Part shown: positions 2,480-63,299 of the stretch, piece after piece | How the letters are laid out: every line of letters begins with the position of its first letter | Position numbering within the stretch: position 1 is the first letter of the stretch | Origin: Haliclystus octoradiatus | Taxonomy: Eukaryota > Cnidaria > Staurozoa > Stauromedusae > Haliclystidae | NCBI GenBank assembly: GCA_916610825.1 | Contig: OU744449.1 | Coordinates: forward strand, 14,060,952-14,124,951 | DNA: 64,000 nucleotides | Direction: 5' to 3' | The notes under the pieces: generated by a model | The model's database searches: none | Seen by the model: the letters and a program-made list of their open reading frames with translations, nothing else | Told to the model about the DNA's origin: nothing | Made by a program: the position numbers and the translations under genes

Positions 2480-3071
2480 ATGGTTGATACAGTAGGCTTA
2501 CCTTCAATCACCCAGTTAGGCTATCTTGCCCTGGATGATGTTGATCATAAACATCTTACTCTTGGTTCTCAAAATGTTCGTAGCATATTAAAAAATCATG
2601 ACAAACTTTCGGAATTTCTATCCCAGACCAACATAAAAATCTTGGCATTGCAAGAAATCTGGCAAGAAGGAGCCACTTTTATTCCCAATTACAATTTTGT
2701 TTGTAAAGAACGACCAAATAGGAGAGGTGGTGGGGTAGGTTTTGCTGTTCATGACTCACTCACTTTTTCTGTCTGTGATAACCTTACAATTATCAGTGAC
2801 GACCTTGAATGCTTTACAATTGAAACTCCTTCTTTATTTATTTTGTCGATTTATATCCCACCTAAAGCAATACTTTCAAAATCTCTTGATACTTTGAAAA
2901 GCATTTTGAATAAAACTAGAAAAAAAACTGTTTTTATGTTAGGTGATTTCAACACTGATCTTCTTGTTTCTTCATGTAAATCCCAATATCTCATTGATTC
3001 ATTATTTGATTTTAAATTATTTCCATTGATTTCTAAACCTACACGTTTAACACAAAAATCCTGCACATTAA
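2480..3071 (+). CDS. LINE ORF2 part 1: APE-type endonuclease
   Basis: Start ATG at 2480, following the ORF1 stop. The product begins MVDTVGLPSITQLGYL and moves into an exonuclease-endonuclease-phosphatase fold: SQNVRSILKNHDKL, then LALQEIW with the catalytic Glu, RRGGGVGFAV, and LGDFNTDLL with the metal-binding Asp and Asn. This domain nicks target DNA for target-primed reverse transcription. The frame is cut at ATTAA (3067-3071), the 5-bp target site of LTR element A, and resumes at 8269. The ORF that continues past 3071 into the LTR is an artefact of the insertion. Confidence 0.9.
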
Positions 3072-3312
3072 TGTTGTATTCCCTATAATTTAATATTAGA
3101 CTCTAGATTAATGAGTAAGCCAATATATTCCCAAGAGGCAACCCTAACTTCACTATGATAATCAGTTGGTGTTTAGCTCAGTAGATGGTTGGTTCTACTG
3201 TAGCAACCCTATTTAGTATTTACATTATTATTATCATTATAAGTTTGAATTTATTGAGTGTTATCTTTGTTGTCTTTACTTGCGTTACACAACACTTTAC
3301 ACACTCACAACA
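3072..3312 (+). repeat. 5' LTR of element A
   Basis: A 241-bp terminal repeat starting TGTTGTATTCCC and ending CACTCACAACA. It contains a stretch resembling a tRNA A-box (TTTAGCTCAGTAGATGG), probably fortuitous. Confidence 0.95.
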
Positions 3313-3322
3313 TGGCGCAGTG
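3313..3322 (+). promoter_or_regulatory. primer-binding site of element A
   Basis: TGGCGCAGTG directly abuts the CA end of the left LTR, the position expected for priming of minus-strand cDNA. I could not assign the tRNA. Confidence 0.6.
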
Positions 3323-3393
3323 ATTTATTTACCTTTTCGCGGAGATTAACATTACCGAATTCATTATTTACTCTTACCATTATATATATTACA

Positions 3394-6300
3394 ATGGAAT
3401 CTCTTCAACTTGCAAAAAATTCTCGTACTGGCTATAAAAGTCTTACTTGTCGTGCATTAGATCGTCTTGATTCTTCTATCAATTTCTTCGATACAATTGA
3501 AACACACATACGTAATATTAATGATTTAAATGCCTCAGAACTATCTTGTCAACAAGCAAAAACAGCATTGCAAAATTATCAATTGGCTCATCTGGCTGTA
3601 GTTACATTACAACCTATCGAAGACAACTCTGAAGAAAATGACATAAATACTTTCGAAAATCGTCTGTTAGCAAGCGAATGTGTCATTTTACAACGAAAAA
3701 CATTATTTACAAGGCCAACATCAACTCACTCGACGACAAGCACGTCCACCACATCATCGACACCACCAGTTCGCTGTACAGCAAAACCACCACCATTATT
3801 AGAAGAAGATGTTGATTTTAAAATATTTTCGCAATGGCAAGAAACCTGGTTTAATTATTGTAGCCTTATCGGTTTATCACTTCAACCACACGAACGCCAA
3901 GTCGCTACGTTTTGGGGACTTTGTTCTCCTGGGTTTTTAAGCATGATACGACGAGTCTTACAAATCGACCGAACTACAATATTAACGACGGACGAACTTC
4001 TTAATTTAATCAAAGATCATCTCAGATCAAAACGAAATACGAATCTTGACTGGCAAAGCTTTTTAACTATTCGCCAAAGCGACAACCAAACCATCGACCA
4101 TTTTTATACTTCCTTAATGGAAAGTAGTGATTATGCAGATGTTGACAAAGTTACACCAGAAATCTTGAGAACAGCTATTTTAATTCTTGGTTTAAATGAC
4201 GAAGAAATAAAACGTAAAGTCATTGCCAAAACGCCATCTTTGAATTTGGCTGACACACTCAAATTTCTCCAAACTGAGGAGGCTGCCACCGCAAACGCCC
4301 ACACGTTGACAAATAACAATAGCAACAGTTTTACCGCTTCCGCTTTTACACGAAATAAAAACAAGTCAACGACAAAAGAACAATCAAAAGAGAATAAACA
4401 CAAAGGTGCAAACAATCAATCGTCTGCATGTAAATATTGTGGTTTTTCATCTCATTATGGTCCTAAATGTCCTGCCGAGAAATCAATATGTCGTCATTGT
4501 AAAAAGACTGGGCACTACTCTCATGTCTGTCTCTCTACTACAAATCACCATGACAACGAATTACAATTACAACCTCCCGTGAAAACATCTCATGTAAAAA
4601 TTCAAAATGTCGGCGAGGATTTACCGTTTCTTGATATTTGTGTTTACAAAGGAGAAAAGTATTTACAAACAGTTCAAGCTATATGCGATACCGGTGCACA
4701 ACGTACAGTTGCTGGACCTGATTTTATTTCACAGCTGAAAATGGACATAGTTTCATTATTACCATCATCTAAAGATATATTTACTGCTATCAATAATAAC
4801 CAACTTACACAATTGGGACAGGTTAGTGTGTATTTTAAACTTGCTGGTAGGGTAGTTCCCTGCAATGTCATTATATGTGATCAAATCGAAGGACTTTACC
4901 TCTCAATGCAAATGTGCAAAGATTTGAATATTATATCACAAAATTTTCCAGCTCCTTTAACACATCAAATCAATTCTATCAGTCATTCACCAAATAACTC
5001 ATCTCCACTTATTTTCAAACATGATGAAAAGCAATGTTGGCTTGATTCTTTATCTACCAACCCATCTAATCAGCAAAAATCTGAAGATATCACAAAATTA
5101 AAAACTATTTATTCCAAAGTATTTCATTCTGATACCAGATTACAACCCATGAGTGGACCCCATGTAGGTGATACCATGAAAATTGAACTTAAACCTGATG
5201 CTGTTCCTTTCGCTGTCATGACAGCAAGAAAAATACCTTTTCCTCAGAGGGAGAAAGTTAAACTAGAATTAGATCGCCTGGAGAGTTTGGGTATTATTGC
5301 AGCTGTTGCAGATGAACCTGTCACTTGGTGTCACCCTTTGGTCATTGTTCCCAAATCTGACGGTGATGTTCGACTTTGTGTAGACCTCACCAAACTCAAC
5401 AAGCAGGTAAATCGCACATTACACCCATCACCTACGCCTGCTGATGCCGTTGCTAGTATTGATCGTACTTCAAATATATTTACCCTGTTGGACGCTAAAA
5501 GTGGTTATTGGCAAATGCCTCTAGACGAAGCTTCTCAACATTTAACCACCTTTATTACACCATGGCGACGCTACAAATTTTTGCGTGCCCCTATGGGGTT
5601 TATTTCAAGTGGGGACTCTTATAATTTACGTATTGACCTAGCTCTAGAGGGTCTTTTACATGTTACTAAAATTGTTGATGATACACTTATTGATGCCGAC
5701 TGTTATACCACCTTAATGTCTCGCACTTGTGATGTTTTAGAACGATTCGCAAAATATAATATTACTTTAAATACGAAGAAGTGTGTATTTGCAGAAGAAA
5801 GTTTAAATTTTGTCGGTTACAAGATTTCACCTGGTAGTTATGCTGCTGATTCTAAAAAGCTTGACGCAATTTCCAAATTTCCTCAACCAACTAATCGCAC
5901 TGAATTACGTTCCTTTCTTGGTCTTGTTAATCAACTTGGTATGTTTACGGCTGATTTAAGTGGTAAGCTAGCACCTTTCCGTGATTTATTAAAAACTTGT
6001 AATGAATTTTTATGGTTAGCAGATCATACTATAGCATTTGAAGCTACAAAACAATTATTACTTTCACCACCTGTATTATCTGGTTTTGATCCATCTTCAC
6101 CTACTGTTCTTCAAACCGATGCATCGAAAACTAAAGGACTTGGGTTTGTTCTACTTCAACAACAACAAGGTATGTGGAAGTTAATTCAATGTGGTTCCCG
6201 TTTTCTTCAACCCTGCGAAACACGTTATGCCATGGTTGAATTAGAAGCACTTGCAATTTTATGGGCCATTCGCAAATGTAAAGTTTATTTATCTGGTCTA

Positions 6301-7872
6301 CCAGCATTCCAAGTTGTTACTGACCACAAACCACTTATACCTATATTTAATAACTATACACTTGATGCTATAGAGAACACTCGTTTACAATCATATAAAT
6401 CAAAATTAAGTCAATACCAATTTACTGTCACTTGGACTAAAGGCAAAGATCATGCTATTCCTGATGCATTATCACGTGCTCCGGTATGCGATCCCACACC
6501 TGATGATATTGAAGATGATTCTCAATTTCCCACTGACCAGATCATTCGTATTGCTGCTTTACGTTTATCTCATGACGATTCTGAAGACAACACATCAATT
6601 ACACGTGCACCTCTTGCTGATCCTATGATTGATCAATTACGTAGCATTGCCCATACTGATACTCATTATCAACAATTAATTATTGCTATTCAACAGGACT
6701 TTCCTGAACCTATTACACCTGCTGTTGGTTTATTTAGAAAAATTTGGCCAGAACTTAGTATTGATAATGGTCTCATCTTATTTGGTGATCGTCTTGTTAT
6801 ACCTCGTTCTTCTCGTTCTGATGTCATATCTCGTCTTCACGCATCTCATCAAGGTATAGAGCGAACAAAACGTCGTGCTCGTCAAGTTGTATACTGGCCT
6901 GGCATGAACAGCGACTTAACTAATGCTGTCCAATCTTGTAAACAATGTGCTAAGTATCTTCCTAGTCTACAAAAGGAACCACTGATATCAGATCCATTAC
7001 CTTCTAGAGTTTTTGAATCTGTCTCTACTGATTTATTTAGCTTGAATGGAAAACATTATTTAATATATGCAGATCGTTTATCTGGCTTTCCTTTTATTTC
7101 TGAATGGCGTGATGACCCTTCTTCATCTCAAGTATTAGAAGTTATTAAACACCATTTTGTACAAACTGGTGTCCCATCACAACTTCGGTCGGACGGTGGT
7201 CCCCAATTTGCTGCCAAAGTATTTAATGATTTTTTAATTTCTTGGGGAGTTAATCGATCTCCTTCTTCTCCTCATTATCCTCAGAGTAATGGCCATGCTG
7301 AATCATCTGTAAAATCTGTTAAAACATTGTTAGCTAAAGTTTCAAATGGAAATATTAAATCTGATGAATTTCTCCGAGGTTTACTAGAACTTCGTAATAC
7401 TCCACGAGCTGAAGGTATTTCACCAGCACAGTGGGTTTATGGACATCCTTTACGTTCGTATGTTCCTGCTCATTTTAGATCATTTTCAAAAGACTGGCAA
7501 TTAGCAGCAAAAACTATTGATAAAAAATTAATCGACTTAGCCACGAAAAATAAAAAATATTACGATTCTAATGCGCATTCATTATCACCTCTACCTATTG
7601 GATCTACTGTTATTTTACAAAGTCCAATTACTAAACGCTGGGATGAAACTGGCATTGTTATTACTGCTAATCCACATGATTATGTTATTCGTTTACCTTC
7701 TGGCAAAGTCAAATGGCGCAATCGCCGATATATTCGTAAATTTACCATTCCAGATGATGATGATATCAATACTCATGTCGATAATCCAAATAATACTGAT
7801 AATACAGATGTCACACTTCAGTTAAGACGTAGTACTCGTGCCCGTCAAACACCCAAACGATATTCTACTTAA
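3394..7872 (+). CDS. Gag-Pol polyprotein of element A (single ORF)
   Basis: The open frame starts at 3280, but its first 38 codons come from the LTR/leader. The ATG at 3394 (MESLQLAKNS), about 1492 residues, is the likelier start because it lies after the PBS. Domains in order: gag with two CCHC knuckles (CKYCGFSSHYGPKC and CRHCKKTGHYSHVC, about 4429-4520); aspartic protease (CDTGAQ, about 4684); RT with VRLCVDLTKLN, LDAKSGYWQMPL and a catalytic IVDD in place of the usual Y-x-DD; RNase H (QTDASKTKGLGF, VTDHKPL); integrase with an HHCC finger and the DDE residues in STDLF, RSDGG and HAESS. A basic tail RRSTRARQTPKRYST ends the protein. Gag and pol are fused without a frameshift or stop, so the Gag:Pol ratio must be set by another route. 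Confidence 0.95.
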   Translation: MESLQLAKNSRTGYKSLTCRALDRLDSSINFFDTIETHIRNINDLNASELSCQQAKTALQNYQLAHLAVVTLQPIEDNSEENDINTFENRLLASECVILQRKTLFTRPTSTHSTTSTSTTSSTPPVRCTAKPPPLLEEDVDFKIFSQWQETWFNYCSLIGLSLQPHERQVATFWGLCSPGFLSMIRRVLQIDRTTILTTDELLNLIKDHLRSKRNTNLDWQSFLTIRQSDNQTIDHFYTSLMESSDYADVDKVTPEILRTAILILGLNDEEIKRKVIAKTPSLNLADTLKFLQTEEAATANAHTLTNNNSNSFTASAFTRNKNKSTTKEQSKENKHKGANNQSSACKYCGFSSHYGPKCPAEKSICRHCKKTGHYSHVCLSTTNHHDNELQLQPPVKTSHVKIQNVGEDLPFLDICVYKGEKYLQTVQAICDTGAQRTVAGPDFISQLKMDIVSLLPSSKDIFTAINNNQLTQLGQVSVYFKLAGRVVPCNVIICDQIEGLYLSMQMCKDLNIISQNFPAPLTHQINSISHSPNNSSPLIFKHDEKQCWLDSLSTNPSNQQKSEDITKLKTIYSKVFHSDTRLQPMSGPHVGDTMKIELKPDAVPFAVMTARKIPFPQREKVKLELDRLESLGIIAAVADEPVTWCHPLVIVPKSDGDVRLCVDLTKLNKQVNRTLHPSPTPADAVASIDRTSNIFTLLDAKSGYWQMPLDEASQHLTTFITPWRRYKFLRAPMGFISSGDSYNLRIDLALEGLLHVTKIVDDTLIDADCYTTLMSRTCDVLERFAKYNITLNTKKCVFAEESLNFVGYKISPGSYAADSKKLDAISKFPQPTNRTELRSFLGLVNQLGMFTADLSGKLAPFRDLLKTCNEFLWLADHTIAFEATKQLLLSPPVLSGFDPSSPTVLQTDASKTKGLGFVLLQQQQGMWKLIQCGSRFLQPCETRYAMVELEALAILWAIRKCKVYLSGLPAFQVVTDHKPLIPIFNNYTLDAIENTRLQSYKSKLSQYQFTVTWTKGKDHAIPDALSRAPVCDPTPDDIEDDSQFPTDQIIRIAALRLSHDDSEDNTSITRAPLADPMIDQLRSIAHTDTHYQQLIIAIQQDFPEPITPAVGLFRKIWPELSIDNGLILFGDRLVIPRSSRSDVISRLHASHQGIERTKRRARQVVYWPGMNSDLTNAVQSCKQCAKYLPSLQKEPLISDPLPSRVFESVSTDLFSLNGKHYLIYADRLSGFPFISEWRDDPSSSQVLEVIKHHFVQTGVPSQLRSDGGPQFAAKVFNDFLISWGVNRSPSSPHYPQSNGHAESSVKSVKTLLAKVSNGNIKSDEFLRGLLELRNTPRAEGISPAQWVYGHPLRSYVPAHFRSFSKDWQLAAKTIDKKLIDLATKNKKYYDSNAHSLSPLPIGSTVILQSPITKRWDETGIVITANPHDYVIRLPSGKVKWRNRRYIRKFTIPDDDDINTHVDNPNNTDNTDVTLQLRRSTRARQTPKRYST

Positions 7873-8022
7873 TTTTATTTACTATTTAGACTATTTACTA
7901 TTTACGATTTAATTTACATTCAAGTCACAATTCCATTCATTATTATTTTTTTTTTTTTTTTAGCTCATTATTAATTCATTTAGTTATTTCATTGACATTT
8001 TATTCGCTCCAAAAAGGGGAGA

Positions 8023-8263
8023 TGTTGTATTCCCTATAATTTAATATTAGACTCTAGATTAATGAGTAAGCCAATATATTCCCAAGAGGCAACCCTAACT
8101 TCAATATGATAATCAGTTGGTGTTTAGCTCAGTAGATGGTTGGTTCTACTGTAGCAACCCTATTTAGTATTTACATTATTATTATCATTATAAGTTTGAA
8201 TTTATTGAGTGTTATCTTTGTTGTCTTTACTTGCGTTACACAACACTTTACACACTCACAACA
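8023..8263 (+). repeat. 3' LTR of element A
   Basis: A 241-bp copy of the 5' LTR with one visible substitution. It is preceded by the polypurine tract and followed by the second ATTAA target copy. Confidence 0.95.
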
Positions 8264-8268
8264 ATTAA

Positions 8269-10006
8269 TAGACAATATCTTCACAAATTCAAGGCATTCT
8301 ATTTCCAGCGGTGTTATCACATCAGATATTTCTGATCATTTTTGCCCTTTTATATCAATTGGCAACCACAGTACCCCTTTGCAGAAAATATCTTTTCGTG
8401 CTATGGGTCCAAATAACATGGCACATTTCAAGCATTTGCTTTCTCTCTGTGATTGGTATTTACCTGACACACCAATTGATTCTTTTCAAAAATTTGAGTC
8501 TAACATCAACACTTGTCTTGAAACTGCTTGTCCTGTGATCAATAAGCCTTCTAATAGGAGAACGCACAGGCTAAACCCATGGTTAACACCTTGTTTGCTC
8601 ATCTCTCGCAAGAGAAGACAATTTTTATACATCAAATGGACCAGAACAAGAAATATCAATGTAAAGGCACTCTATGATTCATACAACAAATTGTATTACA
8701 AATTAATTAGAAAAAGTAAGACTATTTATTGGAATACTTTCTATGATGAAAACAAAGACAACATCAAGTCGATTTGGAAGGCCACAAATGAAATTCTTGG
8801 TAGAAACAAAAACAAAAATAGATATCCAAACTTTTTTAATTTGAACAATAAAGAAATTCATGAAAAACATGAGATTGCTAAGCATTTCAACAGTTTTTTT
8901 ATCAACGTTGGAAAATCCCTTACAAATAGTTTTCTAGAATCTTCCAATTTTGCACAATTTCTCCCAAAAAACGATGGTAATTCATTCAAATTCAAACATG
9001 TTACTAAATTTGCTGTGGAGAAAATTGTGTCCAATCTTAAATCAAAGTCCAGTACTGGTATAGATGAAATATCTAGCTCATTGCTGAAACACGTTAAAGA
9101 TGTTTTAATCCCACCATTAACATTTCTTGTGAACATTTCCCTTCGCACCGGCTACTTTCCAGATTCTTTCAAAATTGCTAAAGTAATACCTCTTTTCAAA
9201 TCAGGAAACAACAAAGAATTTTCTAATTATAGACCAATTTCACTATTGTGCACTTTTTCAAAAATTTTAGAAAAGGTTGTTTATTTTCAATTGTATACCT
9301 ATTTCAACACCATTCTCCTTACTAATGACCAATTTGGTTTTCGTAAATATTTTTCTACAAGTCATTGCTTACTTAACTTTTTAAACAATATTTTTTCTTC
9401 AAAAGGTTCAAAATATCAATGTGCTATATTTCTCGACACCAAAAAAGCTTTTGATACAGTCTCTCATGACATTCTTTTACAGAAGTTGAATCATTATGGT
9501 TTGCATGGGATTGAATTTGAATGGATGACCAATTACCTGTCTAATAGGAGGCAAGCAGTTTTATTTGATGGAGCTTTATCTAGTTTTTGTGAAATAAGCT
9601 GTGGAGTACCACAAGGTAGTATTCTCGGCCCCCTATTATTCTTGATTTTCATAAATGATTTACCCAATTCAACAAAATTCCAAGTAACCCTTTTTGCTGA
9701 TGATACAACATTACAATGGTCCTCAAATAACAAGGAATACCTTGAAAATGAAATAAACAAAGAATTGAAATCTGTGGCGCGTTGGTTTTATGAAAATCAT
9801 TTGACTCTGCACCCAGACAAATGTAAATATATGCTTTTCAACCATGCCAAACTTTTATCTATGTCTTTAGCACTTGATGGTCATGCTCTGGAACATTGCG
9901 GTTCTCTACAAAAGAATCATTTCATTAAATTTGTAGGTGTACTGATCGATGATGATCTCAGTTGGAAAGCCCATGCCAATTTTGTTGCTTCCAAATTACG
10001 TAAAAC
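8269..10006 (+). CDS. LINE ORF2 part 2: endonuclease end and reverse transcriptase
   Basis: Resumes with IDNIFTNSRHSISSG and SDHFCPF (the endonuclease SDH motif, with its catalytic His). It continues through the linker into the RT: STGIDEISSSLLK, PLFKSGNNKEFSNYRPIS, FLDTKKAFDTVSHD, GVPQGSILGPLLF, FADDTTLQW (catalytic Asp pair) and LHPDKCKYMLF. Removing element A with one ATTAA rebuilds SCTL-IDNIF without a break. The block ends at AAAC (10003-10006), the target site of element B. An ATG-initiated frame can be drawn from inside the upstream LTR at 8136, but it is a chance fusion. Confidence 0.92.
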
Positions 10007-10198
10007 TGTAATAATCAGAATATAACTATATTCATAATTATGTCATAACCATAGAGTTTCCGCTGTAAAGCCAATCACGTGACAAGTCACGTGATTTAGA
10101 TATTAAATACGAATGATTTGTTTAATGATATAGAGTTTTAGCAGTAACTTTCCTCAGGTGTGGTCGCTTGTGTTTACATGTAATCAGCTAGTATTACA
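10007..10198 (+). repeat. 5' LTR of element B
   Basis: A 192-bp LTR, TG...CA. It carries a perfect 11-bp inverted repeat containing two CACGTG E-boxes (10073-10096). Confidence 0.95.
10073..10096. promoter_or_regulatory. palindromic double E-box in the LTR of element B
   Basis: AATCACGTGAC, AA, GTCACGTGATT: two CACGTG cores in a perfect 11-bp inverted repeat with a 2-bp spacer. CACGTG is the core site for bHLH factors (Myc/Max, USF, CLOCK/BMAL type). Its place in the LTR suggests promoter control of the element. Binding is inferred. Confidence 0.55.
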
Positions 10199-10200
10199 AA

Positions 10201-10211
10201 TGGTAGCAGAG
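10201..10211 (+). promoter_or_regulatory. primer-binding site of element B (tRNA-iMet type)
   Basis: TGGTAGCAGAG is complementary to the CUCUGCUACCA 3' terminus of animal initiator tRNA-Met. It starts 2 nt after the LTR, as usual for Gypsy elements. Confidence 0.7.
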
Positions 10212-10286
10212 AGTGAGTTTTTTTTTATGATCGATTTTATTTGTAAAGTTTTAAAAGTTTATTTTTGGTAAAATAAAATAGTAAAT

Positions 10287-11669
10287 ATGTCTTCAAGATT
10301 TCGTCGTTCTATTGGACCAGTCGGTGATCGATTGAGAACGCAAGTACAACGTGGCCGCGGTATTTTGGATAATATCGTTGTGGCAGAAACTCAAGATGAC
10401 CACATTGAATTGATTAAACAGTTGAAGAGAAAGCTAGAAAATAATTATGGTACTCTGAAGAATTTATTGGAGAAATGGGAAGATTTGATTGATAATATCG
10501 AAGACAACGAAGATAAGGAACAGGAGAATACAACCTTAGACGAATGGATGAATGGGCAGAGATCATTAATGGGCCTGACCCTCGACGCTAGTGATATTAT
10601 CATCGAATTAGAAGAAAGACTATCAAGGTTAGAGAACCTGAAAGCTGTGATTGTAAGTAAGAATTTGGATAGTAATATTGAAAAAACTAATGATAATGAG
10701 TCTGCTGACGTAGCAGAGAGTGAAAACAATTCCACAGTAACTGCCGTCAGTACAGTCAGTGCAACTACGTCTATTAAATCAGCCACAAAAGCTTTCAGGC
10801 TTAAAAAATTTATGAATACTTTAAACGATTCATCTGATTCTATATCATTTGACAGATGGGTAAAAGATTTAAATGTTGTTTTAACTGATATGAATGAATC
10901 CGCAGAAAACGTTAAAGGTCAAGTGTCTATGTTACTTGGCAGACAATTCCGCCGGGTATGGGACGGAATGATAGACAATAGAGACGGCACCGCTACTGTT
11001 CCCGAAGGAGACTTATTTAAAATAATATTTCCTGAGTTGAAAAGAGCGGTGTTTCCTCAGAAATCTCATGGCGCCTTATACAAGGAATTGTTAAACCTAA
11101 AACAAAAATCAAATCAGACTGTAGCACAATTTAGAATGGATGTAACACAAATAGTAGAGGAGATGCTAATTCACGATTCTCGCGAATCAAAGGACTCCAT
11201 TATCTATCATCAAATGATGGAAGGGATACTCCCAGATTTGAAAGTTTTAATGGAATCTAAGCATTCTCTTAAACATAATAATTTAGAACAATTTTTAATG
11301 TATCTTTCAACTGAAGAAAGTGTTTACATTTCGAACAAACCACAGTCGTCTTCTGATATTAAGGCAGTAAAATCTGACAGTAATAAAGCTAAAACGAATG
11401 AAACTAAATCCTGTTTTCATTGTGGGAAACAGGGGCATTTTATTAAAGATTGTCACGTTAGCTGTGACAAGGCAGAAAAGCCGCATTCTAAATCTAAATG
11501 TAAAATAAAGGTGCCAATGAAATCTGGTAATTATGCCACAAAAGTTTTAACTGTCGAGGAACTGGAACAACAGGTTGCTGAATTAAAATATAAACAACTC
11601 CTAAAAGAATGTGCTACCGATTTAAGTACAAAAATGGTTACAGACGTTAAAGATAAAGATAATCAATGA
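10287..11669 (+). CDS. Gag protein of element B
   Basis: Starts at ATG 10287 (MSSRFRRSIGPVGDRL), 460 residues. An N-terminal charged coiled-coil-like segment (about residues 30-120) is followed by a Ser/Thr/Asn-rich linker, a capsid-like region (about 165-350) with the gag signature QTVAQFRMDVTQIVEEM, and one CCHC zinc knuckle CFHCGKQGHFIKDC near residue 377. A Lys-rich nucleic-acid-binding tail follows. Gag forms the particle and packages the RNA. The frame ends at TGA 11667-11669, and pol continues in the same frame. Confidence 0.93.
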   Translation: MSSRFRRSIGPVGDRLRTQVQRGRGILDNIVVAETQDDHIELIKQLKRKLENNYGTLKNLLEKWEDLIDNIEDNEDKEQENTTLDEWMNGQRSLMGLTLDASDIIIELEERLSRLENLKAVIVSKNLDSNIEKTNDNESADVAESENNSTVTAVSTVSATTSIKSATKAFRLKKFMNTLNDSSDSISFDRWVKDLNVVLTDMNESAENVKGQVSMLLGRQFRRVWDGMIDNRDGTATVPEGDLFKIIFPELKRAVFPQKSHGALYKELLNLKQKSNQTVAQFRMDVTQIVEEMLIHDSRESKDSIIYHQMMEGILPDLKVLMESKHSLKHNNLEQFLMYLSTEESVYISNKPQSSSDIKAVKSDSNKAKTNETKSCFHCGKQGHFIKDCHVSCDKAEKPHSKSKCKIKVPMKSGNYATKVLTVEELEQQVAELKYKQLLKECATDLSTKMVTDVKDKDNQ

Positions 11670-11678
11670 CAATTATTG
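11661..11678 (+). promoter_or_regulatory. candidate stop-codon readthrough site between gag and pol
   Basis: The junction reads CAA-TGA-CAA-TTA: a single in-frame TGA (11667-11669) followed by CAATTA. This fits the stop-CAR-YYA hexamer context known from tobamovirus-type readthrough. The frame is open for 460 codons before and about 1229 codons after. The first possible ATG of the downstream ORF lies well inside the protease region, so readthrough is the simplest way to make Gag-Pol. Seen: same frame and context. Inferred: function. Confidence 0.7.
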
Positions 11679-14600
11679 TTCTCTTGTAGAGAGGAATTAT
11701 CTGTGTTAGACAATGAAGGAAACGTGTTATGCGCCCCACTATTAGGACTATTAGACACCGGTAGTGGGCCTACTTTAATGTCAAAGGATATAATTATCCC
11801 ATTATTACAAAAATATTCTGATGAAATTCCATCTCGCCCCTGTACGTCTGGTCGTGTATGTGATGCCAGTGGAAATTCTTTAGCTATTATGGCCGAAGTA
11901 TTATTAAATATGAAATTATCTAAGGGAAAGATGGTAAAAATGTGGGTAAAAGTTCAAGGGGGCAACGTTAAAAATTCATGTTTACTTGGCAGGGAATTCT
12001 TATACCATGCTGGGTTTAATTTTGAAAGGATGAAAGACGATGGTAATATTATTAATTATTTAAAACCTCTTGATAAACCATCTGATATTATTAAGAGTAA
12101 TGATGTATGCAATGTTTATGTCGAAAAACAACATATTATGCATCGGCCAGGACATTCTGAAATTAAAGTTAGAATAGACAATAATAATACAATACGACTT
12201 AAAGATAATGAGGTTTTTGTTCTACAACCGTCGCCACATACTAAAGATAAGGGTTTGCTAATTGATGAACTTGTTATGCAATCTATTGTTAAATCTATTC
12301 CGATCAATTGTACATCCGGTCCAGTTACTTTAGAGGACAATGAAATAATAGCTACTATCGAAAAAGCTCATTTATTTACTACGGATGACATCAATCTATT
12401 ATGTGATGACAATGATAATAATTTTATTGAAAGCACTTGTAGCATAACTGATGACAATATGGTAGACGAGCGATTACGTATTATTTGCGATAGATTAATT
12501 ATGTCAAATTATACTGACGAAGAACAAAGTCAATTAACAAGTTTAATTTCTAAATGGAACAAAGTATTTGCTTTAAACGATTCAGAGCTGGGAGAAGTCT
12601 CTCTAGTTGAACATTCTATTATTACCCCTCCTGATGCTGCTCCTGTGCGACAGCATGTACGACGTTTAAATTTATCTTATCGTGACTCTTTAAAGAAACA
12701 ATTAAATGATTTATTAGGTCAAGGTATTATTGATGTATCTAGTAGTCCTTATGCAAGTCCTATTGTTATTGTTAAAAAGAAGGATGGTTCATTACGCTTA
12801 TGTGTAGATTATCGTGCATTGAATAGCATTACTAAGAAAGATAGATATCCATTACCTCGTATTGACGATATTATTGATACCATCGGATCTAAAAAGATTT
12901 TTAGTACTTTGGATTTATTTTCTGGATATTGGCAGATTAAGTTAGATAATGATGCACAAGAAAAGTCTGCTTTTGTTACACCGTTTGGTCAATTTTCGTG
13001 GCGGCGTTTGCCATTTGGGTTGTGTAATGCCCCGGCAACGTTTCAACGCCTGATGAATTCCGTCTTACACGATTATATTGGAATTTTCTGTTCAGTCTAT
13101 TTAGATGATATTATTGTATATTCATGTTCTCTTGAAGAACACACAAGTCATCTTAATTTGATTTTTCAACGTTTATATGATGCTGGATTGAGATTGAAGC
13201 CATCAAAATGCAATTTATTACAAAATGAAGTCCATTATTTAGGACATGTTATTACTGGTTCTGGTGTAAAAGTAGATTCTGATAAAGTTATGCAAGTTAA
13301 AAATATTGCACCACCTACTAATGTAACAGAATTGAGGTCATTTCTTGGTATGGTTGGATATTACCGTCGATTTATCAAAGATTATGCTAAAATAGCACAT
13401 CCATTGTATGCATTATTAAAAAAGGATAGACCATTTATTTGGAGTATTAATCAATCTGAAGCTTTTGAATTATTAAAAACTAAGCTTTGTTCAACTGATG
13501 TTTTAGCCTATCCGGATATGGACAGAGATTTTATATTACATACTGACGCTTGTAAGTCTGGATTTGGAGCAGTTTTGTCACAGCTAGATTGTAATGGGCG
13601 GGAACGCCCCATTGCTTATGCCGCTCGAACTGTTACCAGCGGTGAAGAAAATTATTGTATTACTGAATTAGAGGTAAAAGCTTTATACTGGGCGTGTAAA
13701 ACGTTCCGTCCTTATATTGAAGGTCATAAGACCTTGGTTTATACTGATCACAAGCCACTTACTAGTATTGCAAAACATATCGAATTAAAGGGTACTTGGA
13801 CCAGATGGGTATGTGAGTTAAATGGCTATGACCTAGATATACAATATAAACCTGGCATACTTAATGTTGTGGCGGATGTTTTATCGCGTACTGTGGCAGC
13901 TATAGATGATATGGAAGAAAATGTACAACAATTACCATTTTGTGATGAATCACATCAAAAGATTATTATTGAACAGGAGAAGGATCCTTTTATTAAAAGT
14001 ATTAAAAAGTATTTACATGATGGAGAACAACCTATTGACGAGGATCATTCTAGATTACTAAAATGCTATGATAATAGATTTGTATTACTAGATGGTATTT
14101 TATGTTTTGAGACCTCTAACTCTACTCGTGCACCTATTGTCGTGCCTGAGCATTTACGGTACAAATTATTAGAAGAAAATCATGGCGGATTCGGAGGTCA
14201 TCCAGCTGAAAAACGTATGTTAGAAAGAATAAGGCAATATTATTGGTGGCCTAAACTACGACAGTGTGTTCGGGATTGGTCAAAAGGCTGTTTTGATTGC
14301 GCTATCGCTAAAGGATCATCAAGACGTCGTAGATCACCAATGAAAATAACGGAGACACCTAATTGTCCTTGGGACATAGTATCAATCGATTTGACAGAAT
14401 TTAAACAAATATCTGAAAGAGGTAACAAAATTGCTTTAGTAGTATTAGATACATTTTCCAAATGGATAGAGGTATTTCCTCTTCCTAATAAGAAAGCTGA
14501 AACAATTTGTGAAACATTGTATCGTGAGATTATATGTAGATTCTCGGTACGCAATATTACAAGCGACCGTGGTTCTGAATTCTGCAACGAGCTATTAGAT

Positions 14601-15356
14601 GAGGTATGTACTCGATTAAAGATTGCCAGGGCTAAAACTAGTGGCTACCATCCCCAAGCAAATCCAGTAGAAAGGGTGAATCGTAAATTAAAAGAACAAT
14701 TAAGAATTTGTGTTCAGAAAAATCCGTATGACTGGGAAGTAGCATTACCTGAAGTTTTATGGGCTGATCGTGCTACACCACACACTGTAACTGGCAACAG
14801 TCCATATTATGTATTATTTGGATATGATCCAATCTTACCCTCAGAAACATCATTTAGAGAACCACGTACTCAATATCAAGTTGATGCTGATGATTATGCC
14901 TCAATTATGTTTGAGAATCAAAGAACAATTTGGAAAGAGGTATTTGAAAGAATTGAAGGTCAAAAACATATTTATAAGCGTCATTATGACAAACGTGTTG
15001 ATGCAGCTGAAAGTATTATAAGACCAGGTGATCGAGTATTTATTTTTCGGCCTGATTTATTACAAAAACGTGCAGGTAAATTAGTATCACCTTTTGATGG
15101 ACTCTATCGTGTGGAAAGTACAACAGACACTGGCGCAAATGTACGCCCAATTTTTCAGCGTGGAAAGAGATGTGATATTATACATGTAAATTTTGAACGC
15201 ATCAGTAAAGCCGATAAAAGGATTCCTGACAAATGGCGTACAGACTTTGGTAGACGCCGACGAGTAAAATTAAGTACAGATAATAAACCTGAACCTGATA
15301 TTAGGAATGATGATCAAATAAGTCATCCTTATAATTTACGATCTTCAGATAAATAA
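11670..15356 (+). CDS. Pol polyprotein of element B (protease, RT, RNase H, integrase)
   Basis: About 1228 residues, open from the TGA onward and in the gag frame. Domains in order: aspartic protease (LLDTGSGP, about 11750); RT with LRLCVDYRALN, STLDLFSGYWQIKL, LPFGLCNAPATF and catalytic YLDD (about 13100); RNase H (HTDACKSGFGAVLSQ, YTDHKPL); integrase HHCC finger (HGGFGGHPAEKRM to CFDCAIAK), then the catalytic Asp residues in SIDLTEF and SDRGSEF and the Glu in PVERVNR. The C-terminal module has GDRVFIF and YRVESTT. It does cDNA synthesis and integration. All catalytic residues are present. Confidence 0.95.
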   Translation, partial: QLLFSCREELSVLDNEGNVLCAPLLGLLDTGSGPTLMSKDIIIPLLQKYSDEIPSRPCTSGRVCDASGNSLAIMAEVLLNMKLSKGKMVKMWVKVQGGNVKNSCLLGREFLYHAGFNFERMKDDGNIINYLKPLDKPSDIIKSNDVCNVYVEKQHIMHRPGHSEIKVRIDNNNTIRLKDNEVFVLQPSPHTKDKGLLIDELVMQSIVKSIPINCTSGPVTLEDNEIIATIEKAHLFTTDDINLLCDDNDNNFIESTCSITDDNMVDERLRIICDRLIMSNYTDEEQSQLTSLISKWNKVFALNDSELGEVSLVEHSIITPPDAAPVRQHVRRLNLSYRDSLKKQLNDLLGQGIIDVSSSPYASPIVIVKKKDGSLRLCVDYRALNSITKKDRYPLPRIDDIIDTIGSKKIFSTLDLFSGYWQIKLDNDAQEKSAFVTPFGQFSWRRLPFGLCNAPATFQRLMNSVLHDYIGIFCSVYLDDIIVYSCSLEEHTSHLNLIFQRLYDAGLRLKPSKCNLLQNEVHYLGHVITGSGVKVDSDKVMQVKNIAPPTNVTELRSFLGMVGYYRRFIKDYAKIAHPLYALLKKDRPFIWSINQSEAFELLKTKLCSTDVLAYPDMDRDFILHTDACKSGFGAVLSQLDCNGRERPIAYAARTVTSGEENYCITELEVKALYWACKTFRPYIEGHKTLVYTDHKPLTSIAKHIELKGTWTRWVCELNGYDLDIQYKPGILNVVADVLSRTVAAIDDMEENVQQLPFCDESHQKIIIEQEKDPFIKSIKKYLHDGEQPIDEDHSRLLKCYDNRFVLLDGILCFETSNSTRAPIVVPEHLRYKLLEENHGGFGGHPAEKRMLERIRQYYWWPKLRQCVRDWSKGCFDCAIAKGSSRRRRSPMKITETPNCPWDIVSIDLTEFKQISERGNKIALVVLDTFSKWIEVFPLPNKKAETICETLYREIICRFSVRNITSDRGSEFCNELLDEVCTRLKIARAKTSGYHPQANPVERVNRKLKEQLRICVQKNPYDWEVALPEVLWADRATPHTVTGNSPYYVLFGYDPILPSETSFREPRTQYQVDADDYASIMFENQRTIWKEVFERIEGQKHIYKRHYDKRVDAAESIIRPGDRVFIFRPDLLQKRAGKLVSPFDGLYRVESTTDTGANVRPIFQRGKRCDIIHVNFERISKADKRIPDKWRTDFGRRRRVKLSTDNKPEPDIRNDDQISHPYNLRSSDK

Positions 15357-15542
15357 TTTTAAGTTACCTTTATTGGTACACAAGACAAATGGACATTTCA
15401 AGTTAATTTATCAATATATTCATTAAATAGTTTTAATTTCCTTTATAGTTAAACAAAAGAAATAAAAATTTAAAGTTAGTATTCATTAATTTTTTTTTGA
15501 GACAATCAGTGGAAGATTGTTATTATTTTAGTAAGGGAGAAA

Positions 15543-15734
15543 TGTAATAATCAGAATATAACTATATTCATAATTATGTCATAACCATAGAGTTTCCGCT
15601 GTAAAGCCAATCACGTGACAAGTCACGTGATTTAGATATTAAATACGAATGATTTGTTTAATGATATAGAGTTTTAGCAGTAACTTTCCTCAGGTGTGGT
15701 CGCTTGTGTTTACATGTAATCAGCTAGTATTACA
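15543..15734 (+). repeat. 3' LTR of element B
   Basis: Appears identical to the 5' LTR. The polypurine tract GTAAGGGAGAA lies immediately upstream. The twin E-box palindrome recurs at 15609-15632. Confidence 0.95.
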
Positions 15735-15738
15735 AAAC

Positions 15739-16291
15739 AATCTTCACCCTAATTCGTCTAAAAAATTTCTTAACTTTGAAGCATAAATTAATAATTTACA
15801 ATTCTTTATGCAAACCTCACTTTGAGTATTGTATTGAGATCTGGGGTCATGCAAATGTTTCACGGTTAGAGTTGTTGCAGAAAAAGTGTGTGAGGATTAT
15901 AATGAACGCAAAATACCTATCCCATGCCGAACCACTGATGAAATATTTAGGTATCTTGAAATTCAAAGATTTATACAATTTAAAGGTGGTTTCTTTAATG
16001 CATAGACTGTTAATTGCCAATGATTCTGTCCCATCGTTTTTACTATCAATGTTTAATTTTTTTGAATCCAGATTCAGAAAGTTGAATGTCTTTGAAGTTC
16101 CTTTTGTAACTAAAAAAATGCTACAATCATTACCAAATTATAGATTTCCAACACTTTGGAATGGTTTCACTTATACCTTTCCTGAAAATTTATATTCATC
16201 GTCTAATACTTTCATCAACTATATTCGAAAGAACATTTTAAAATCCTACTATTCCGTTTGCACTTACAAAAACTGTTACATATGTTGTTAA
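15739..16291 (+). CDS. LINE ORF2 part 3: C-terminal domain
   Basis: Continues the ORF2 frame after element B. The junction reads KLRKT-IFTLIRLKNFLTLKHKL, followed by IYNSLCKPHFEYCIEIWG, the conserved C-terminal 'thumb/tail' region of Jockey-superfamily RTs, and ends in a Cys-rich stretch (YSVCTYKNCYICC) before the TAA. Short relatives of this tail occur at 22030-22240 and 60021-60431 in this window, so several copies of one family are present. Confidence 0.9.
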
Positions 16292-16540
16292 ATTGTATTA
16301 TTTTTTTTGTATAGTATGTTAACTTCTTAATTACAATTAATTTTTGAATTTTCTTTACTGTAGTTTAAATTCACCATTTTTATTTTAATCTTTTACCCAT
16401 GTCATTCATAAACTCTATAGCGTCTCTCAATAGACAAGCAAATTTTGCTTACGAGATGACGTCAACCACTGTATATCATATTTCATAAATCAATGTCTTT
16501 AGTCTGTAAATATTTTTTTTTTTATCATGTGGTTGAAATA
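16292..16540 (+). other. 3' UTR of the split LINE
   Basis: AT-rich sequence between the ORF2 stop and the (ATTCT)n tail. No hairpin or polyadenylation signal stands out beyond an AATAAA-like GAAATAAAATTC just before the tail. Confidence 0.6.
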
Positions 16541-16570
16541 AAATTCTATTCTATTCTATTCTATTCTATC
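16541..16570 (+). repeat. (ATTCT)n tail of the LINE
   Basis: Five to six ATTCT units close the LINE, a microsatellite-type tail in place of poly(A), as is common in CR1/L2-type elements. Confidence 0.8.
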
Positions 16571-16671
16571 TATATTATATAAAAAAAACGACTTTAAAAT
16601 TACATTTGCAAATAGTTCACTGCTGGAACTGGAACATTTTAAACAACCAAGGAACTGCTCCTGGGACCGGG

Positions 16672-18304
<1,633 letters not shown>

Positions 18305-18340
18305 TACATGGCGAAGGAGTCAAAGAATACACATTCTTTA

Positions 18341-18382
18341 CTGTTACTCAAGTTTCATTCTTTTCACAGCGACTTCAGACAG
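18341..18382 (-). ncRNA. decayed hammerhead ribozyme motif (Penelope-associated)
   Basis: Minus strand: CTGT (stem I), then CTGAAGT where the conserved core is CTGATGA, a stem-II region, GAAAC, a short stem III, GTA, and ACAG closing stem I. The layout matches the intact motif at 51194-51233, but the core has two changes, so cleavage is unlikely. It lies 3' of the minus-strand GIY-YIG ORF, where Penelope-like elements are known to carry hammerheads. Confidence 0.5.
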
Positions 18383-27016: not shown

Positions 27017-27218
27017 TGTTGTGTAATGTAATTTGTAATAATCAAGCTGTCCTGTCTTGTATATGCGAAGTTGTAATTCTATGTGTAATTGACGTCATCA
27101 CCCTATGTAATTCCTGTAATCTATCTATGTGTAATTTGAAAAATAAATCAGTTCCAGTTTGACCGTCGTTGTGTTCGCTGGCACTCAATGTCGCTATAGC
27201 AAAGTCAGCTATACGACA
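27017..27218 (+). repeat. 5' LTR of the TRIM-like element
   Basis: A 202-bp TG...CA repeat. It differs from the 3' LTR at three positions (near 27109, 27141 and 27181). Confidence 0.92.
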
Positions 27219-27488
27219 ATTTGGCGTCCCCGGGTGGGCTTCAACTAAACAGCTGAAGTATACTGTATAAAGCAAGTTAAATATCACCTCTGCTCAAAAG
27301 AAACGAAACACGAGAAGATATCAAAGGGAAGTGCATGTTAAAATCACCTCTGCAGAGACAAATCGGCCAACAAGAAACACAACGAGACGAAGTATTAAGG
27401 AGATTAAATCTACCTAAAGAAACACAGAAATCAACTAAGCAGGCAAGTTAAACCACCTCTGCTAAAAGAAACAACGACACTATTGAAA

Positions 27489-27600
27489 ATGCTGAAACAT
27501 GCAAGGAATGCTGAAACATGCAAGGAATGCTGAAACATGCAAGGAAACTGCTGAAACATGCAATGGACTTTATAAACTGCTGAAACATGCAGGGATTTGT
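27489..27600 (+). repeat. short tandem repeat inside the TRIM-like element
   Basis: Five copies of a unit built on GCTGAAACATGCAAGG; the last two are spread by an insertion. Possibly remnants of a packaging or structural region. Confidence 0.7.
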
Positions 27601-27706
27601 CAAGAATTAAAGGTTTTGTTTAACAATGTATGATCGTAAGTTGCCAGAAATTGTTTGACAAATTTTGTAAAAGTAAAATTGCCACTCCTTAAAGTTGGAA
27701 AGGGGA

Positions 27707-27908
27707 TGTTGTGTAATGTAATTTGTAATAATCAAGCTGTCCTGTCTTGTATATGCGAAGTTGTAATTCTATGTGTGATTGACGTCATCACCCTATGTAA
27801 TTCCTGTAATCTATCTATGTGTAATTTGAATAATAAATCAGTTCCAGTTTGACCGTCGTTGTGTTCGCTGGGACTCAATGTCGCTATAGCAAAGTCAGCT
27901 ATACGACA
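27707..27908 (+). repeat. 3' LTR of the TRIM-like element
   Basis: A 202-bp repeat preceded by the polypurine tract and followed by the second GTGAC target copy. Confidence 0.92.
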
Positions 27909-30365: not shown

Positions 30366-30593
30366 TGTGCTGATCGATGCAAATAAAATAACAGTCTCAT
30401 TTTCATTAACCTCTTATTCATGTAACATGTTAAATAATGATATACTGTGAATTATGACATAGACATTCCTCTGTGAGACATTAACTTGAATAGATCTCTT
30501 ACAACGTTATTAAATCTTTGTTGATTTGTCTTGTCTTTAATATACAAACTTATGATGCAGAATGAATCATATATTATACAAATGCCTTCTACA
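30366..30593 (+). repeat. 5' LTR of element C
   Basis: A 228-bp repeat starting TGTGCTGATCG and ending CCTTCTACA. Confidence 0.93.
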
Positions 30594-31470
30594 AATGGTG
30601 ACGACGACGTGATGATACCGCGAAGACAAAATTCAACTCCAATTATAAATCACGAGGAATCACTTCAATCACAGAAAACGATCAACGTGGTCAGTACACC
30701 AATAAAACTGCCACCATTTCACCGGACGCATATTTCTTTTTGGTTTGAACAAATTGAAAGCATGTTTGCATTAAGGAGAGTTACGGCCGAGATATCCAAA
30801 TATCACTATGTTATTGCTGAGTTACCACCTGACGTTGGACCTCTGGTAGTCATGGAAGAATCAAATGCAGCTGCCGGATATTGCCAAACCTTATACAAAG
30901 TTAAAAGCTTTACTAAAGCAAATGTTTGGTAAGACGAAGCAGCAGCGCCTTCAAGAGGCACTCGGTGAGATTTCCTTGGAAGATTTGAAACCTTCTATTT
31001 GTGAATTAAAGATCAGAAAGTCTCTTTTAGCCTCTGGGATTAAGGACGAGGATAGCTTAGTTCACCATTGCCTTATGAGTGCCCTGCCACCTCAAATTAG
31101 AAATATATTATTGGCTCAGGTTCATTTACCCTCCACAGATTTTTTATTAATTGCAGATACAATCTGGAATTCTGCCCGTTTCGAAACGGTCCAGGCTGTT
31201 TCGCAACCGTCTGCCCCGCCTACGTTGCATGTGGATGCAATTTCACACTCATCCCGCCGTGACAGTTCCTCTCGTGACGTTGATAAATCTGTAGTCCGAG
31301 GTTTCTATAGAGATCAACCATCTGTCATCTGCCGCTCACACTTATATTCCGCTGACAAGGCAACGCAATGCACCCGCTGGTGCAAATGGCCCGGGACTAA
31401 ACCTTCTTTTGATCGCTCATCTTCCCCCACTGGTTCACGTTCTATCTCCCCTGTCCCGGGAAACTCGTAA
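30531..31470 (+). pseudogene. Gag of element C, frameshifted
   Basis: The first frame (to 30932, its start inside the LTR) contains the CsRn1-type gag motif IKLPPFHRTHISFWFEQIESMF and EISKYHYVIAELPPDV. The second (from 30865) continues LQEALGEISLEDLKPS, GIKDEDSLVHHCLMSALPPQIR and the finger-like CRSHLYSADKATQCTRWC. The frame change lies between about 30865 and 30932. The protein would form the capsid and bind RNA. The CHCC spacing supports the clade call. Confidence 0.85.
30596..30613 (+). promoter_or_regulatory. tRNA-Trp primer-binding site of element C
   Basis: TGGTGACGACGACGTGAT starts 2 nt after the LTR and differs at two central positions from the perfect complement of the tRNA-Trp 3' end. 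Confidence 0.75.
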
Positions 31471-31499
31471 GTCACGTCGAGTCCCCTACTCGACGTGGC

Positions 31500-44682: not shown

Positions 44683-45771
44683 CTACATGTATGTCTCTAA
44701 CCATTCAATTTGCCTTAGAACGAATGGATCTCTCACGTCACCCAACTTCGTACGTTTATCGCCATACGAGTAACGTCCGTAAGCATACGGGAGAGTGTAA
44801 TCCCTAACTGATATTTTTGAGCCTTTTGAACTTGTAGATGGAAAGCGCTGACTCTTTTTGTACGATCTCCTACTAATGCAATGGCATGTTCCGCATTTAT
44901 GCAATGTCACCAGGGTAGCTTTGATTGCCTTCTTTAGTCTTGAATGCCTTGAACACAATACCAATGGCATCATTGAGCCACCGCTATAAGCTATAATGTA
45001 AGCGGCATTTAATAGCAGCGTGATACTGCGACCTGAATGACCCAGTAAGTAAAATAAAGCATAAACAAAAAACGGGGTCCAACTTATGAAATAAACAAGA
45101 ACCAATATTCCAATAGTCATAATGATTCGTTGCTGTCCATATGGTCTTGTAATACTTGTTTCACGTATGCTTTGAATATGTCGTGAAACACGTATACACA
45201 TTATTGTGGATAATAAAATAGTCAATGTCATTGGCATAACATAAGCACTAAACAATAAAAATAAAATATAAGTTATTCTTGATTCACCTTCTGGGTTAGC
45301 AAAAACGCACTGCGATGCATAGCGAATATGTGTGAATGTATTCCAACCTACTGTAGGACCAATAGCACAGGCAAACGAGCCAAGCCATACAAGAATTATT
45401 GCCAGATGTATTTGTTTCTGTCTGTGAGAGCGTTTGAACGGATTACGAATCGATAAAAATTTATAAACAACAAGCGCTACCACTGAATATACCGATGCGG
45501 ATAACCAAAATATATTCATAAATCCGTTAACTTTGCATACCGTTTCGCTTAATATCCATCCGCCTTTGATGACGGTGAGAAGGTTAAATGGTATACAACA
45601 GGCCACCATTCCGATGTTCACAATAGCAAGGTTTAATACAAGGCGATACGTTTTCGTTCTCATATCTCTGTTGCTTAAAATGGCCACAGTAACTAAACTA
45701 TTACCAAATAATCCAACACCAAAAATCACTATTAAAACCACTCCTTGGATACAACGTTCTAGGTCATCCAT
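44683..45771 (-). CDS. class A (rhodopsin-like) G-protein-coupled receptor, single exon, atypical motifs
   Basis: 362 residues in one exon; ATG at 45771. Seven hydrophobic segments lie at about residues 9-33, 44-68, 80-107, 121-142, 167-192, 215-243 and 250-273. Class A landmarks are GN in TM1 (N24), the disulfide pair C79/C155, W129 in TM4, P180 in TM5 and SWTPF in TM6 (W231, P233). Three activation motifs are altered: the TM2 Asp (2.50) is N52, DRY reads YKF (103-105), and NPxxY reads MPLVL (268-272). The tail has a Cys cluster (about 292-298) that could be palmitoylated, and many Ser/Lys. The ligand is unknown. It could be an orphan receptor with unusual signalling or a decoy. Confidence 0.85.
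   Translation of the reverse strand: MDDLERCIQGVVLIVIFGVGLFGNSLVTVAILSNRDMRTKTYRLVLNLAIVNIGMVACCIPFNLLTVIKGGWILSETVCKVNGFMNIFWLSASVYSVVALVVYKFLSIRNPFKRSHRQKQIHLAIILVWLGSFACAIGPTVGWNTFTHIRYASQCVFANPEGESRITYILFLLFSAYVMPMTLTILLSTIMCIRVSRHIQSIRETSITRPYGQQRIIMTIGILVLVYFISWTPFFVYALFYLLGHSGRSITLLLNAAYIIAYSGGSMMPLVLCSRHSRLKKAIKATLVTLHKCGTCHCISRRSYKKSQRFPSTSSKGSKISVRDYTLPYAYGRYSYGDKRTKLGDVRDPFVLRQIEWLETYM

Positions 45772-46627: not shown

Positions 46628-63299
<16,672 letters not shown>

What the first reader, a model, noticed from the sequence alone, without database searches (positions are those of the whole stretch)
11661..11678. Gypsy element B appears to use stop-codon readthrough (CAA-TGA-CAA-TTA) to make Gag-Pol
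Seen: gag (460 codons) and pol (about 1228 codons) share one frame and are parted by exactly one TGA, followed by CAATTA. Known: the stop-CAR-YYA context promotes tobamovirus readthrough, and gammaretroviruses also read through a gag stop, whereas Ty3/Gypsy elements usually use a frameshift or a fused ORF. The LTRs are identical by eye and every catalytic motif is intact, so a random nonsense mutation is less likely than a kept signal. Element A in the same LINE solves the same problem with a fused ORF.
Basis: partly seen in the sequence, partly recalled or inferred. Interest (0 to 1): 0.85.

Follow-up and report, generated by a model that had tools for sequence, protein, structure and literature searches.

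The report
Retrotransposon reading through its own stop
A recently active jumping gene in an animal-like genome seems to make its enzymes by letting some ribosomes pass a stop codon in a leaky setting, a trick known from tobacco mosaic virus, mouse leukaemia virus and fission-yeast elements; its nearest relatives in the same genome have no stop there.

Summary
In a Ty3/Gypsy element with identical LTRs, a 460-codon gag and a 1228-codon pol share one frame, parted by one TGA followed by CAATTA. It is no private mutation: all 21 close copies found (window included) carry it, 18 of them with two identical LTRs and distinct target duplications. Two diverged relics keep TGA at the same place, though neither keeps CAATTA whole. 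B and the gag relic differ mainly at third codon positions (28/35/71), so TGA seems to have persisted while the lineage evolved as coding sequence. Pol's first AUG lies beyond the protease active site, TGA is not a Trp codon here, and no sense-codon copy was found. Published mammalian reporters give CARYYA about 15% readthrough in another gene's setting. Readthrough is the best explanation, not measured here. The sister family has sense codons at the junction (4 of 4 readable relics); five other families examined have a -1 overlap, so the stop looks gained. In-frame TGA in Ty3/Gypsy is known in fission yeasts; this tobamovirus-type context in an animal-like element appeared in none of my literature listings. 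A hairpin helper is unproven; splicing is not fully excluded.

The parts
10003..10006 (.). target-site duplication AAAC, 5' copy (3' copy 15735-15738)
10007..10198 (+). 5' LTR, 192 bp, TG...CA
   Evidence: identical to 3' LTR, 0 of 192 differences
10201..10211 (+). primer-binding site TGGTAGCAGAG, fits the 3' end of initiator tRNA-Met
   Evidence: sequence; the tRNA match is recalled, not computed
10287..11669 (+). gag, 460 codons from ATG to TGA
   Evidence: zinc knuckle by Pfam at E 0.0032, below the curated cut-off
11409..11453 (+). zinc knuckle (CFHCGKQGHFIKDC)
11667..11669 (+). in-frame TGA stop at the gag-pol junction
   Evidence: in 21 of 21 close copies and 2 of 2 relics
11670..11675 (+). 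CAATTA, the CARYYA readthrough context
   Evidence: motif per PMC4132726
11679..11695 (+). predicted 7-bp hairpin starting 9 nt after the stop; unproven helper
   Evidence: its 20-nt window ranks 87 of 5709, its 24-nt window 176 of 5705 by energy; pair probabilities 0.52-0.70; folds around the junction not better than shuffles
11670..15356 (+). pol, 1228 codons (protease, RT, RNase H, integrase) to TAA
11754..11762 (+). protease active-site DTG; upstream of the first in-frame ATG (11778)
15533..15542 (+). polypurine tract AAGGGAGAAA
   Evidence: sequence; assigned by its place next to the 3' LTR
15543..15734 (+). 3' LTR, 192 bp

Best explanation
Element B is a recently active Ty3/Gypsy retrotransposon, without a detected chromodomain, whose Gag-Pol is made by programmed stop-codon readthrough. 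Most ribosomes end at UGA 11667-11669 and release Gag; a minority decode UGA with a near-cognate tRNA, favoured by the 3' hexamer CAAUUA, and go on in the same frame to make Gag-Pol. This sets an excess of Gag over Gag-Pol. SHOWN: the arrangement, its presence in all copies found, persistence of TGA in two diverged relics, a third-position bias between B and the relics, absence of a pol AUG before the protease active site. INFERRED: that ribosomes read through, the efficiency, the residue inserted, and any part for the hairpin. The stop was probably gained after B split from a sister family whose gag and pol are fused.
For: TGA-CAATTA in 21 of 21 close copies, window included; 18 of 21 have both LTRs identical (0 of 192) with matching, mutually distinct 4-bp duplications, so TGA-bearing RNA was copied many times. 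Gag frame whole in 19 of 21, pol 1228-codon frame in 20 of 21. Relics L022 and L023 keep TGA at the aligned site. B/L022 gag differences by codon position 28/35/71, p 7e-6; B/L023 pol 42/46/66, p 0.04. First pol AUG is codon 37, DTG is codons 29-31, and similarity to the sister family's protein starts at codon 3-4. 21 TGG codons and no in-frame TGA in the 1693 codons of the two frames, so TGA is not a Trp codon here. No sense codon among the 23 B-lineage junctions found (the tool calls such counts lower bounds). CARYYA after UGA gives about 15% readthrough in mammalian reporters, UGA about equal to UAG (PMC4132726, passages).
Against: No RNA, peptide or reporter data. CAATTA is whole in neither relic: L022 has TGA-AAA-TTA, L023 TGA-CAA-TGA; each change is private, so decay is likely but not shown. 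Substitutions polarised to the B branch are few and not significant (L023 pol 7/11/15, L022 gag 3/3/7). The junction's high conservation in L022 is not clearly beyond shuffling (338 of 5000 for the best 53-base window; other tests weaker). RNA folds are no better than shuffles (z -0.70 to +0.50, five stretches). One possible splice donor (10653) is kept in L022. In Tca2 a UGA between gag and pol was not read through by its flanks alone in budding yeast (PMC2194720, abstract).
Confidence: 0.84

Rival explanations
1. Splicing: an intron ending in the pyrimidine-rich TTATTGTTCTCTTGTAG just after the stop removes the TGA and makes a fused or separate Pol message.
For: The AG at 11688-11689 follows 11 pyrimidines in 14 and is kept in both relics. 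Four donors reach 7 of 9 consensus letters (10213, 10628, 10653, 11527), and each has an AG in matching phase just after the stop. Donor 10653 is kept in relic L022.
Against: No donor reaches 8 of 9. Donors 10628 and 11527 are lost in L022; 10213 lies outside the alignment. The pairs with 10628 and 10653 would remove most of gag. No copy lacking such an intron was among the 34 matches, although spliced RNA could be copied back.
Confidence: 0.07
2. Nonsense mutation in a defective master that spread on Pol made by other copies.
For: The near-identical copies come from one recent source, so a shared TGA alone proves little. Trans-mobilisation of defective LTR elements is known (mentioned in passages).
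Against: No sense-codon helper among 23 B-lineage junctions; the seven sister-family copies examined (L068-L071, L121-L123) are broken or fragments; TGA is older than the burst, being in two relics at 75-78% identity; the stop carries a CARYYA context, about a 0.1-0.4% chance.
Confidence: 0.05
3. Pol is started anew after the stop (termination-reinitiation or an internal start) and not fused to Gag.
For: An AUG overlaps the stop (AAUGACAA, AUG 11666-11668).
Against: That AUG opens a 7-codon frame out of frame with pol; the first in-frame AUG (11778) lies after the protease active site (11754); of the near-cognate starts checked, only one TTG and two GTG come earlier.
Confidence: 0.04

Closest known systems
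Tj1, Tosmo1-3, Tcry1 (fission-yeast Ty3/Gypsy of the Tf1/sushi branch; PMC4600332, PMC10085805, passages read)
   Same: Ty3/Gypsy, gag and pol in one frame parted by an in-frame TGA; Tj1's pol lacks an AUG; related single-ORF elements exist (Tf1, Tf2). In Tj1 removal of the stop left virtually no transposition.
   Different: Their context is GAA-TGA-CT(A/G), not CAA-TGA-CAA-TTA; fungal hosts. B's pol shows no chromodomain; B was not placed on a tree.
Gammaretroviruses (Moloney murine leukaemia virus)
   Same: In-frame stop at the end of gag read through to give Gag-Pol (PMC5009743, passages).
   Different: UAG with a stimulatory 3' pseudoknot; B has UGA, a CARYYA hexamer and at most a small hairpin.
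Tobacco mosaic virus replicase readthrough (CARYYA class)
   Same: CARYYA directly after the stop, important for TMV readthrough and active with UGA in mammalian cells (PMC4132726, passages). TMV's CAA-UAG-CAA-UUA is recalled and differs from B only in UAG for UGA.
   Different: A plant RNA virus; what is shared is a cis signal, not descent.
Candida albicans Tca2 (Ty1/copia)
   Same: gag and pol parted by one UGA (PMC2194720, abstract).
   Different: Different superfamily; the flanks did not direct readthrough in budding yeast.
SIRE1 of soybean (Ty1/copia), recalled only
   Same: Stop suppression with a stop-CAR type context in a plant LTR element.
   Different: The stop precedes the env-like gene, not pol. 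From memory; no paper on it was read here.

Membership tests
Ty3/Gypsy LTR retrotransposon | pol order protease-RT-RNase H-integrase | tested here: met
   Pfam RVT_1 368-528, RNase H 616-720, H2C2 825-881, rve 898-987; DTG at 29-31; no Pfam protease match
Ty3/Gypsy LTR retrotransposon | paired TG...CA LTRs with short target duplication | tested here: met
   192-bp identical LTRs, 4-bp duplication in 18 of 21 copies
Tf1/sushi branch (group of Tj1; its chromoviral standing is recalled) | chromodomain at the integrase C-terminus ('usually' present in chromoviruses) | tested here: not met
   no chromodomain match in pol at E 0.01; a much diverged one could be missed
LTR elements with gag-stop readthrough | single in-frame stop between gag and pol, shared by copies | tested here: met
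   21 of 21 close copies, 2 of 2 relics
LTR elements with gag-stop readthrough | pol lacks an AUG able to give a complete protease | tested here: met
   first AUG 11778, DTG 11754
LTR elements with gag-stop readthrough | measured Gag-Pol fusion product or reporter readthrough | not testable with these tools
   needs bench work
CARYYA-type readthrough signal | stop followed by CARYYA | tested here: met
   CAATTA in 21 of 21 close copies; in 0 of 2 relics (AAATTA, CAATGA)
Gammaretrovirus-type readthrough signal | 3' pseudoknot shortly after the stop | tested here: inconclusive
   small hairpin 9 nt downstream with a 3-nt loop, no significant fold; no pseudoknot program was run

The most novel reading that the evidence does not exclude
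Within one genome, a fused Gag-Pol lineage switched to stop-codon readthrough with a compact tobamovirus-like signal (UGA-CAAUUA, perhaps with a small 3' hairpin whose sequence the fused sister lacks), and this readthrough form is the one that has just multiplied, while the seven sister copies examined are broken or fragments: a natural before-and-after case of how a recoding signal arises in an animal Ty3/Gypsy element.
Probability: 0.5. Interest if true: 0.65.

Novelty: new variant of a known kind. Interest (0 to 1): 0.5.

Why it matters
Retroelements generally need more Gag than Gag-Pol (recalled). In a 2003 survey, as reported in PMC5009743 (passage), 28 of 51 animal retroelements had pol at -1 and 2 at +1. 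A recently active element with a tobamovirus-type UGA signal, beside a fused sister family and -1 overlap families in the same genome, lets one ask how such a signal is gained and whether it changes an element's success. It also offers a natural CARYYA site in an animal-like genome; the motif is best known from plant viruses.

Tried and rejected
Recoded TGA (TGA = Trp): rejected, 21 TGG and 0 in-frame TGA in gag and pol, likewise 21 and 0 in element A. Selenocysteine: Rfam on 9990-15750 gave one match at E up to 1, a sub-threshold sRNA (RT-3, E 0.79), and no SECIS. Frameshift: rejected, pol is in gag's frame. Reinitiation at the overlapping AUG: 7-codon frame. Three-way junction around the stop (11657-11702): pair probabilities 0.52-0.87, but its 54-base window ranks 899 of 5675 by energy and by eye L023 breaks it; left as unproven. 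Nucleotide hyperconservation of the junction in relics: not significant. Gag homologues: none at E 0.001 among the 7993 candidates scored. Pol search (residues 1-480): 6395 hits, 120 listed, none closer than 58% identity. No relatives of this genome are held, so conservation across species could not be tested. Gao et al. 2003, the survey of gag-pol recoding, is not held, so whether it lists an animal Ty3/Gypsy element with an in-frame stop is unknown to me. Passages of PMC10309623, PMC7175516, PMC2678813, PMC554778 and PMC6875170 gave no such animal case; Cer1 is said to have no stop between gag and pol. On re-checking my calls I found that donor 10653 is kept in L022; splicing went from 0.06 to 0.07 and readthrough from 0.85 to 0.84.

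Full report
What is there. The window lies at G000:C5:14060952-14124951 of a 262-Mb assembly. Its LTRs are 10007-10198 and 15543-15734, 192 bp, identical, flanked by AAAC on both sides. Gag runs from ATG 10287 to TGA 11669 (460 codons), pol from 11670 to TAA 15356 (1228 codons), same frame. The junction is AAT CAA TGA CAA TTA TTG.

Copies. A search with 11500-11900 found 21 places at 100% over 401 bases, the window's own among them, and two diverged ones; a pattern search with up to 3 mismatches found the same 23 and no match of the backward control. The tool warns that such counts are lower bounds. Of the 20 other close copies, 17 have both LTRs identical to the window's and matching 4-bp duplications; in three (L083/L084, L111/L112, L117/L118) no matching LTR stands at the expected place at one or both ends. 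With the window that is 18 of 21, and the 18 duplications all differ. Over 11199-15350, 19 of the 21 differ from the window at 0-2 positions; the other two (L048, L067) depart over part of the stretch. Gag is open to the TGA for 465 codons (stop to stop) in 19 of 21 and pol for 1228 codons in 20 of 21. So the TGA-bearing element itself multiplied recently. Because the copies are so young, their agreement alone says nothing on selection.

Relics. Relic L022 (C1:26498180-26498961, 75%) reads CAA-TGA-AAA-TTA; relic L023 (C2:13543737-13544023, 75%, and 13542995-13543654, 78%) reads CAA-TGA-CAA-TGA. TGA is kept in both; the hexamer is whole in neither, each with a private change. Differences between B and L022 in gag fall 28/35/71 on codon positions 1/2/3 (chi-square p 7e-6); between B and L023 in pol 42/46/66 (p 0.04). 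With sister copy L068 as outgroup, changes on the L023 branch are flat (22/21/18), those on the B branch lean to position 3 (7/11/15) without significance; for L022 gag they are 3/3/7 on the B branch and 12/3/9 on the relic branch. I read this as a lineage that evolved under coding constraint while holding the TGA. Against it, the junction is not conserved clearly beyond what shuffled differences give (338 of 5000 for the best 53-base window in L022; other windows and runs weaker).

Sister and other families. The closest other family (RT 54-70% identical) has an open frame across the junction: TKMVSDNDYNTDTFLTCRDQLSVLN in L068 against TKMVTDVKDKDNQ*QLLFSCREELSVLD in B. Four copies that can be read there (L068, L071, L121, L123) have sense codons; L122, more distant, is broken nearby; in L069 and L070 no match to the junction stretch was found. 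All seven carry other stops or are fragments. L022's junction has the same length as the sister's, so the TGA appears to stand where the sister has a sense codon (by eye). Five further families (L072-L076 as one; L077; L078; L079; L080) have gag and pol in overlapping frames with pol at -1, judged from open frames. Element A is one 1551-codon frame; its gag part was not verified. So the in-frame stop looks gained in B's line.

Why readthrough. Pol lies in gag's frame, so a frameshift does not help. The first AUG of pol is codon 37, past the protease DTG at codons 29-31, while similarity to the sister starts at codon 3-4. The AUG overlapping the stop opens a 7-codon frame. TGA is not a Trp codon here (21 TGG, 0 in-frame TGA). 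The AG ending TTCTCTTGTAG could be a splice acceptor; four donors of 7 of 9 consensus letters have an AG in matching phase after the stop; in L022 two of the four are lost, one (10653) is kept and one is outside the alignment. Splicing is thus weak but not excluded. Decoding of UGA is left as the likeliest. CARYYA follows 1 of 409 stop trinucleotides in the element and 11 of 8613 in the window. Loughran et al. 2014 (PMC4132726, passages) measured about 15% readthrough for CARYYA in the OPRL1 setting in mammalian cells, similar for UGA and UAG, and name CAAUUA as the hexamer they mutated.

Structure. A hairpin at 11679-11695, starting nine bases after the stop, lies in a 20-base window that ranks 87 of 5709 and a 24-base window that ranks 176 of 5705 by energy. 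Its sequence is unchanged in both relics and differs in the sister (not folded there). But five folds around the junction are no better than shuffles (z -0.70 to +0.50) and there are no compensating changes. It stays a suggestion.

Known work. In-frame TGA between gag and pol is known in the fission-yeast Ty3/Gypsy elements Tj1 (stop needed for transposition; PMC4600332, passages), Tosmo1-3 and Tcry1 (conserved GAA-TGA-CT; PMC10085805, passages). Moloney leukaemia virus reads through a UAG (PMC5009743, passages). Tca2 has a UGA whose flanks did not suffice (PMC2194720, abstract). Nine searches listed no paper whose title or abstract start describes an animal Ty3/Gypsy element with a CARYYA stop; I looked into ten papers by passages or abstract. 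The library lacks most subscription papers and the 2003 survey by Gao et al., so this is not proof of absence.

Verdict. Observation confirmed; interpretation supported by comparison, not by measurement. A new variant of a known kind: Ty3/Gypsy readthrough with a tobamovirus-type context, in an animal-like host, beside a fused sister.

Noticed in passing
3071-8263: Element A: second LTR element, repeats 3071-3312 and 8022-8263 identical, one 1551-codon frame with RT, RNase H and integrase.
   Followed up: partly
11657-11702: The stop lies in a fully stacked predicted three-way junction (7, 6 and 7 pairs, no unpaired bases at the centre); energy unremarkable and, by eye, broken in relic L023.
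   Followed up: partly
11666-11668: An AUG overlaps the stop (AUGA), as in termination-reinitiation systems, but opens only a 7-codon frame.
   Followed up: yes
L077, L078, L079, L080, L072-L076: Five other Ty3/Gypsy families of this genome have pol at -1 relative to gag; their slippery sites were not examined.
   Followed up: partly
30525-34229: A third Gypsy-like element by eye (protease, RT, RNase H, integrase motifs) spread over several frames, probably decayed.
   Followed up: no
16488-18350 and 50177-50897: Long trinucleotide-type repeat tracts, open in many frames.
   Followed up: no
44683-45795 (-): Frame of 370 aa that looks like a seven-helix receptor, with no database hit at E 1e-30; the host lineage may be poorly sampled.
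   Followed up: partly
27017-27908: 202-base direct repeat, 99% identical, 690 bases apart.
   Followed up: no
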